A program made the translations under genes and the position numbers. 64,000 bases of DNA from Cyanobacterium aponinum PCC 10605. Lineage in GTDB: Bacteria; Cyanobacteriota; Cyanobacteriia; Cyanobacteriales; Cyanobacteriaceae. Every line of letters begins with the position of its first letter. Positions within the stretch are counted from its first letter, which is position 1. Positions 23,098 to 23,767 of the stretch are shown piece by piece. The notes below the pieces were generated by a model, which was not told where the DNA came from, made no database searches, and was given only the letters and a program-made list of their open reading frames with translations. The stretch is from positions 3,658,001 to 3,722,000 of the forward strand of contig NC_019776.1 of assembly GCF_000317675.1 (NCBI RefSeq), given 5' to 3'.

Positions 23098-23295
23098 ATG
23101 GAAACAGCAACTTTAAAAGAAATGATCAAAGAAAGTATTAGGGAAGTATTGCACGAAGAACGTTTATCTTTAATACAATCTTTGATACCTCCTGTGAATG
23201 ATGAAGAAATGAAGGAAATTGAAGGAAAATTTGGTCATCCCCATAACTATAATGAGGCTAATTTTGTTGAGATGAATGATTGGTTAAATGATTAA
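23098..23295 (+). CDS. Antitoxin of MITE-disrupted toxin-antitoxin pair
   Basis: A 65-residue acidic protein (METATLKEMIKESIREVLHEERL) with a long N-terminal helix and acidic tail ending WLND. The position directly before a RelE/ParE-type toxin and the 8-bp overlap with its start (ATGATTAA) identify it as the antitoxin. AGAGGT at 23088-23093 serves as ribosome site. The toxin is now broken by the MITE insertion. Confidence 0.65.
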   Translation: METATLKEMIKESIREVLHEERLSLIQSLIPPVNDEEMKEIEGKFGHPHNYNEANFVEMNDWLND

Positions 23296-23767
23296 ACTAA
23301 AATTTAGTAAAAGTGCGGTTAAATTTATTAATAATTTATCTGAAAAAGACCAATTAAAAATGGCTCTATCACTTCTCGTCGTGTAAATTATTAGTGTTTG
23401 GTAGGCAAGAGGCAAGAGGCAATAGACAATAGGAGATTATTAAATAATAATTTATAAACTTTTATTTTTTATTTTACTATAAAAACTATTCAATAAAGGT
23501 TATGGAAGTTATTTTTTATTAATTTATCATAACCACTGTAGAAGAACCTTAAAAATTAAGCAAAAACTAAAATATTTAGTAGAAAAAATTAATGAAGATA
23601 ATAATATTCCTTTTCAGGAATTAAATATAAAAACTTTAACAGGTAATTGGAAAGGTTATTTAAGATTAAGGATAGGAAAAATTAGGATTATTTTTAGGAT
23701 AAATTCCATAGATAATGAATTATTAATATATGAAATAGATGATCGAAGAAGTATTTATAAAAAATGA
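23288..23767 (+). pseudogene. RelE/ParE-type toxin interrupted by a MITE
   Basis: The 5' part (23288-23361) encodes MIKLKFSKSAVKFINNLSEK. The 3' part (23549-23767) encodes LKIKQKLKYLVEKI through a final IDDRRSIYKK. Between them is a 187-bp MITE with a perfect TTAAAAAT duplication (23354-23361 and 23549-23556). Removing the MITE and one octamer restores one continuous frame of about 94 residues with RelE/ParE landmarks (LTGNWKGYLRLRIGKIRIIF). The insertion introduces a stop after 32 codons, so the toxin is inactive. The inserted length (187+8=195) is a multiple of three, so only stop codons kill it. Confidence 0.88.
23362..23548 (-). mobile_element. ISL3-like MITE, copy 2 (inside toxin gene)
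   Basis: 187 bp, reverse orientation to copies 1 and 3, starting GGCTCTATCAC and ending CTGTAGAAGAACC. It is flanked by identical octamers TTAAAAAT, a target duplication. The imperfect inverted ends GG(C/T)TCT and the 8-bp duplication fit the ISL3 pattern. The interior holds short repeats (AGGCAAGAGGCAA units) shared with the composite elements. Confidence 0.88.

What the first reader, a model, noticed from the sequence alone, without database searches (positions are those of the whole stretch)
23288..23767. MITE insertion caught inside a toxin gene with a perfect 8-bp duplication
The RelE/ParE-type toxin frame is interrupted by 187 bp that occurs twice more in the window. Both sides carry TTAAAAAT. 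Deleting the element and one octamer gives a continuous toxin frame with D-Q-L-K-I-K-Q-K-L-K over the joint. This fixes the element's ends and its target duplication directly from one window. It also shows the antitoxin now stands alone.
Basis: seen in the sequence. Interest (0 to 1): 0.8.

Follow-up and report, generated by a model that had tools for sequence, protein, structure and literature searches.

The report
Short jumping DNA inside toxin gene
A 187-base piece of jumping DNA that cannot move by itself landed inside a small bacterial toxin gene of a cyanobacterium and broke it, and a sister species still has the same gene without the insertion; the element is a new member of a kind already described in another cyanobacterium.

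Summary
Window 23362-23548 is a 187-bp element between two copies of TTAAAAAT (23354-23361, 23549-23556), inside a RelE/ParE-like toxin frame (23288-23767) behind an intact antitoxin gene (23098-23295). The home genome gave 47 matches, 41 covering at least 165 of 187 bases. Of 30 copies read with flanks, 24 have a perfect 8-bp duplication and 4 more match at 7 of 8. Nature supplies the decisive test: another genome of the same genus (G001) has the same antitoxin (100% aa) and an unbroken 94-aa toxin gene. The only gap across the two genes is exactly 195 bp, one octamer plus the element. The element's right end matches an ISL3-family element of the same taxonomic family: 25 of 27 bases, PF01610 remnant, perfect 8-bp AT-rich duplication. 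So it is a MITE, most likely moved by an ISL3-type transposase, although none was found in G000 or G001. A 187-nt ISL3-type MITE with 8-nt repeats, also hitting genes, is described in Microcystis (PMC11448079). Real and clean, but a new member of a known kind. Extras: the element's ends reassort among copies; a neighbouring toxin gene is also broken.

The parts
23362..23548 (+). 187-bp ISL3-type MITE; left end type A, right end type 1
23354..23361 (.). left copy of the target duplication TTAAAAAT
23549..23556 (.). right copy of the target duplication TTAAAAAT
23098..23295 (+). intact antitoxin gene, 65 aa (weak RelB_like PF25734, under its cut-off), identical in protein to that of G001
23288..23386 (+). 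N-terminal piece of the toxin gene, 32 codons then a stop codon supplied by the element (last codons lie in the element)
23558..23767 (+). C-terminal piece of the toxin gene; no ATG, GTG or TTG in its frame after the stop at 23537-23539
771..959 (-). second copy of the element in the window; duplication 7 of 8 (AAGATTAT / AAAATTAT)
55641..55827 (-). third copy of the element in the window; no duplication (4 of 8); flank shorter than in G001

Best explanation
A non-autonomous element (MITE) derived from an ISL3-family insertion sequence transposed into the toxin gene of a RelE/ParE-like type II toxin-antitoxin operon after this genome's lineage split from that of its sister G001. Staggered cleavage of 8 bases at an AT-rich target left TTAAAAAT on both sides. 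The element brings a stop codon 8 codons into its left end, and the C-terminal part has no usual start codon, so no whole toxin should be made. The antitoxin gene, which comes first in the operon, is untouched, so the event should do the cell no harm. Shown: many copies, duplications, unoccupied site in the sister, broken frame, match of ends to an ISL3 element. Inferred: that an ISL3 transposase acted in trans and was later lost or left, that no toxin is made, and that the loss is neutral.
For: 47 matches in the home genome; perfect 8-bp duplications in 24 of 30 copies read, expectation by shuffling about 0.8. G001: single TTAAAAAT, gap of exactly 195 bp between ungapped blocks of 261 and 312 bases, intact 94-aa toxin. 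Two further sites have a clean unoccupied counterpart in G001: L002 exact, L016 within one base. ISL3 link: PF01610 remnant of 96.7 bits in an 823-bp G010 element with a perfect ATAATTAA duplication; its two ends match the MITE's right end (25 of 27 bases; 39 gapped columns; 0 of 500 shuffles each); G008 and G005 carry the same end beside PF01610 (3 of 25 mismatches).
Against: No ISL3 transposase in G000 or G001, so the mover is inferred from relatives. The left end of this copy matches the G010 ends over GGCTCT only, no better than shuffles (188 and 194 of 500); only the alternative left end, as in L014, matches better (0 of 500 against one of the two G010 ends, 106 of 500 against the other). 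Two of 30 copies have no convincing duplication (L005, L008). Only one other genome of the genus was among the 60 searched.
Confidence: 0.95

Rival explanations
1. The element was at this site in the common ancestor, and G001 lost it by a precise excision that removed the element and one octamer.
For: With two genomes of one genus the direction at this site rests on parsimony.
Against: The G001 toxin frame is open and its protein is like the intact relatives in other genomes; other G000 copies also lack a counterpart in G001, which would need many precise losses.
Confidence: 0.03
2. The insertion is adaptive: the lineage is shedding toxins while it keeps the antitoxins for another job, such as regulation or protection against toxins that arrive on plasmids.
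For: The antitoxin differs from that of G001 by one synonymous codon, the toxin C-terminal part by five amino-acid and two synonymous codon changes. A second TA pair about 1.6 kb away (21030-21517, minus) also has an open antitoxin frame beside a frame-shifted toxin in G000, while G001 has that toxin whole.
Against: The counts are very small and the changes are not assigned to a branch; a broken toxin beside an intact antitoxin is also what neutral decay gives first, because loss of the antitoxin first would kill.
Confidence: 0.08
3. The element is moved by a transposase of another family that also makes 8-bp duplications, and the likeness to ISL3 ends is convergent.
For: No ISL3 transposase in G000 or G001.
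Against: Match of 25 of 27 bases to the end of an element that holds a PF01610 remnant, same length of duplication, AT-rich target; published ISL3 link of the Microcystis MITE (PMC11448079).
Confidence: 0.04

Closest known systems
187-nt MITE of Microcystis aeruginosa PCC 7806 (PMC11448079; passages and the whole of section 21 seen)
   Same: 187 nt, 8-nt target duplications, imperfect ends beginning GGCTCTTCG shared with ISL3 elements that also have 8-nt repeats, 31-33 copies, mainly intergenic and often near TA genes, some inside genes.
   Different: Another genus; copies there are identical to each other, here they are 86-94% identical to this copy and vary in their ends; the two sequences were not compared; the mover is present there and was not found here.
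ISL3-family insertion sequences (here the 823-bp G010 element, L112 1448-2270)
   Same: Ends, 8-bp AT-rich duplication.
   Different: The MITE codes for no transposase and shares only its ends; the G010 element itself is a remnant.
Nezha MITE of cyanobacteria (Zhou et al. 2008; paper not seen, only its entry in a reference list, and a mention in PMC3733652)
   Same: A cyanobacterial MITE.
   Different: Sequence, parent element and duplication not compared.
RelE/ParE superfamily toxins (RelE3, 3bpq)
   Same: Profile match over the length of the protein (4.5e-07); operon with an antitoxin upstream.
   Different: Most profile scores of single proteins lie under the curated cut-offs; activity untested.

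Membership tests
MITE (non-autonomous miniature element) | short, without a transposase gene | tested here: met
   187 bp, no ORF that could hold one
MITE (non-autonomous miniature element) | many dispersed copies | tested here: met
   47 matches, 41 covering at least 165 of 187 bases; 40 of 327 first-look candidates were scored, so this may be a lower bound
MITE (non-autonomous miniature element) | target duplication of fixed length | tested here: met
   8 bp: 24 of 30 perfect, 28 of 30 at 7/8 or better
MITE (non-autonomous miniature element) | terminal inverted repeats | tested here: inconclusive
   imperfect: GGCTCTATCAC against GGTTCTTCTAC, 7 of 11 in place (read)
MITE (non-autonomous miniature element) | unoccupied sites in relatives | tested here: met
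   this site and L002 exact, L016 within one base
ISL3-derived | ends like those of an element with an ISL3 transposase | tested here: met
   right end 25 of 27 to the G010 element with PF01610; left end of this copy only GGCTCT
ISL3-derived | 8-bp AT-rich duplication, as in the ISL3 relative | tested here: met
   ATAATTAA on both sides of the G010 element
ISL3-derived | moved by an ISL3 transposase | not testable with these tools
   needs an experiment; no PF01610 in G000 or G001
RelE/ParE superfamily toxin | match over the curated profile cut-off | tested here: inconclusive
   C-terminal part 19.8 and G001 toxin 22.0 bits against 23; 2 of 5 other intact relatives over it; under the NCBIfam cut-offs
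RelE/ParE superfamily toxin | operon with an antitoxin just upstream | tested here: met
   the two genes overlap in G000 and G001; relatives of both lie side by side in G020, G035, G036, G041 and G045

The most novel reading that the evidence does not exclude
This MITE family spread, also into the toxin, while its two ends kept reassorting between copies, so that left-end types A and B and right-end types 1 and 2 occur in all four combinations, each with perfect target duplications. The mobilising transposase came and went by transfer and left a mobile family without a resident mover; and the two neighbouring toxin losses mark a lineage in which antitoxins are kept for another use.
Probability: 0.1. 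Interest if true: 0.5.

Novelty: new member of a known kind. Interest (0 to 1): 0.25.

Why it matters
It is a clean, naturally controlled case (occupied and unoccupied site in sister genomes) that fixes the ends, the target duplication and the likely parent family of a high-copy cyanobacterial MITE. It also shows a type II TA operon losing its toxin while its antitoxin stays. It extends the ISL3-type MITE known from Microcystis to a Geminocystis-like group, but changes no general idea.

Tried and rejected
A resident ISL3 transposase in G000 was sought by profile and with the G010 protein piece: none at those limits. A scan of genome contigs for the IS/MITE end found 4 stretches (Gomphosphaeria aponina, Agaribacillus aureus, two of Geminocystis sp. 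GBBB08); I did not read them further. Rfam over 22600-24000 gave one hit far under its cut-off (mir-4766, 22.2 against 72 bits). RNA folding of the + strand is somewhat stable (z -2.55, 2 of 200 shuffles as good), the - strand is not (z -1.36, 19 of 200); I draw no regulatory claim. The plasmid collection gave only an 87-bp match at window 23012-23098, outside the element, in two Geminocystis sp. NIES-3708 plasmids. A first alignment to G001 used the wrong strand and was discarded. Whether MITEs cluster near TA genes, as reported in Microcystis, was not tested genome-wide.

Literature: searches. MITE with Geminocystis as whole words: 0 papers. PMC10969869, PMC3733652, PMC4133298 and PMC6354349 were seen as passages only; PMC11448079 as passages and one whole section; the other papers as search listings only.

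Sixty genomes now reads as home included, the copy count carries its scoring limit, and L011 is counted as probable only.

Full report
What is there. It lies in a toxin frame that starts at 23288, overlapping the end of a 65-aa antitoxin gene (23098-23295), and ends at 23767. The N-terminal piece runs into the element and stops after 32 codons. The C-terminal piece, in the frame that opens after the stop at 23537-23539, contains no ATG, GTG or TTG (ATT and ATA codons occur), so it should not be translated by itself.

Is it more than chance. The octamer alone is weak evidence in DNA this AT-rich: it occurs 33 times on the two strands of the window. The element family is strong evidence. The home genome (G000, 4.18 Mb) gave 47 matches at E <= 0.001, 41 of which cover at least 165 of the 187 bases; 40 of 327 first-look candidates were scored, so the count may be a lower bound. 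I read the flanks of the best 30 of the 47. At the BLAST ends 22 of 30 have a perfect octamer pair and 3 of 30 have 7 of 8; shuffled partners predict 0.8 and 0.7. Three of the other five had their ends placed wrongly because the BLAST match stopped short; at the true ends two are perfect and one is 7 of 8. That makes 24 perfect, 4 at 7 of 8, and 2 without a convincing pair (L005 with 5, L008 with 4). L008 is the copy at 55641-55827 in this window; beside it G001 has some 23 bases that G000 lacks, which would explain the missing duplication. L005 lies directly beside another, partial copy (863307-863413 and 863414-863600); this was not pursued.

The unoccupied site. Sixty genomes, home included, were searched with the toxin's C-terminal part (14 of 60 match) and with the antitoxin (15 of 60). 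G001, the only other genome of the genus among them, has both, at 93% and 100% aa identity, 70 bases apart instead of 265. Aligning the window with G001 gives, from 5 bases before the antitoxin start to 93 bases past the toxin's stop, one gap only: window 23354-23548, 195 bp, that is one octamer and the element. It sits between ungapped blocks of 261 and 312 bases, and G001 has TTAAAAAT once there. The G001 toxin is an unbroken 94-aa frame. In an alignment with five further intact relatives (39-63% identical to the G001 toxin) the two window pieces fall into one protein family.

Other sites in G001. Eight further G000 copies were compared with G001. The L002 site is exact (single ATATTGTA). 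The L016 site has a 188-base gap against 189 expected. At four copies (55641 and 771 in the window, 2146445 in the genome, L026) the G001 stretch between the flank matches is shorter than the element (23, 169, 168 and 114 bases) and no match to it is listed there, but the flanks differ otherwise, so these are absences, not clean unoccupied sites. At L011 the G001 gap is 1,529 bases with no element match in a capped list: probably absent. L007 is not syntenic and tells nothing. So of 9 sites, this one included, 7 lack the element in G001 (3 of them cleanly), 1 probably does, 1 is uninformative. G001 has copies elsewhere (13 matches, all 13 scored candidates; best 86% identical). The family has moved since the split.

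What moved it. G000 and G001 have no match to PF01610 (ISL3 transposase), while 24 of 60 genomes do and the control genomes ring in 4 of 14. A second search with the transposase piece of G010 finds nothing in G000 or G001 and matches 6 of 20 genomes. In G010 an 823-bp element (L112 1448-2270) has a PF01610 remnant (96.7 bits), a perfect ATAATTAA duplication, and two ends that both match the MITE's right end: 25 of 27 bases, and a gapped match over 39 columns (0 of 500 shuffles each). In G008 and G005 the same end lies beside PF01610 with 3 of 25 mismatches. The left end of this copy matches the G010 ends over GGCTCT only, no better than shuffles; the alternative left end, as in L014, matches one of them (0 of 500) and not the other (106 of 500). 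I conclude ISL3 parentage with a mover that is now absent. One G010 contig has the same length as a Geminocystis sp. GBBB08 record, so the host is probably a Geminocystis-like cyanobacterium; that is inference.

Reassorting ends. Scoring left ends A (TTCTCGTCGTG) or B (TTTGAGTATG) and right ends 1 (ACTGTAGAAGA) or 2 (ACTCTGAAGA), the 30 copies fall A2 17, B1 7, A1 4, B2 2; among the 22 with perfect duplications at the BLAST ends, 13, 5, 3, 1. All four combinations have therefore moved. The copy in the toxin is A1. Recombination or gene conversion between copies is the simplest reading; recurrent change is not excluded.

Are genes hit often. By reading-phase arithmetic, without joining flanks, 3 of 30 sites have at least 36 open codons on both sides in one phase (L014, L018, L019); this toxin has 24 and 69; six others show weaker pairs of 15-44 codons that chance could give (L004, L021, L023, L024, L029 and the other strand of L001) and the rest none of 15 or more. 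L014's upstream part is PF05635 (116 bits). L018 and L019 share the target and the surrounding gene, which looks like a transposase to me, though its upstream part has no Pfam match, so they are probably one event copied.

Known or new. PMC11448079 (section 21 read) describes a 187-nt MITE in Microcystis aeruginosa PCC 7806 with 8-nt duplications, imperfect ends beginning GGCTCTTCG shared with ISL3 elements, 31-33 copies, mainly intergenic and often near TA genes, some inside genes. The equal length is probably coincidence; the sequences were not compared. A review (PMC10969869, passages) lists gene inactivation by MITEs in several bacteria. So the finding is right and ordinary in kind. I found no paper that holds both MITE and Geminocystis.

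Limits. Only one other genome of the genus was among those searched, so the direction at this site rests on parsimony. The toxin's activity, the effect of the insertion and the identity of the mover are inferred. The toxin is named from profiles mostly under their curated cut-offs and from a profile match to solved RelE structures.

Noticed in passing
window 21030-21517 (-): A second TA pair: the antitoxin frame (21272-21517) is open, the ParE-like toxin is frame-shifted in G000 while G001 has it whole (83 aa, PF05016 over its cut-off). Two neighbouring toxins are thus broken in different ways.
   Followed up: partly
window 21515-21815 and 23768-24067: Direct repeat of 94-95%: a copy of the 3' end of the htpG-like gene (name from memory; 23832-25793, -) and its downstream DNA. 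It begins right after the broken toxin's stop on one side and at the start of the second antitoxin gene on the other. G001 has only about 120 bp of the second copy.
   Followed up: partly
L018 and L019 (G000:C1:3431418 and 2853652): The same MITE with the same octamer lies inside two copies of one gene, which looks like a transposase of another element, as if the MITE had been carried along by it.
   Followed up: partly
window 23402-23432 within the element: The element holds a run of 7-bp GGCAAGA-like units whose number differs between copies (fewer in L007, L016, L021, L028; more in L006, L022); the same units occur outside it at 22701-22735 and give short matches in many genomes.
   Followed up: no
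window 22857-22924, 26076-26143, 47960-48027: Another repeat of 68 bp (78-88% to the first copy), containing TTCTTAAACCGAACTGAGGTTA, not part of the MITE.
   Followed up: no
window 51680-53352: Ten copies of a direct repeat with a 126-bp spacing (one break of 525), perhaps a repeat protein.
   Followed up: no
L005 (G000:C1:863307-863600): One copy lies directly beside a partial copy, perhaps an insertion of one element into another; its octamers match at 5 of 8 only.
   Followed up: no
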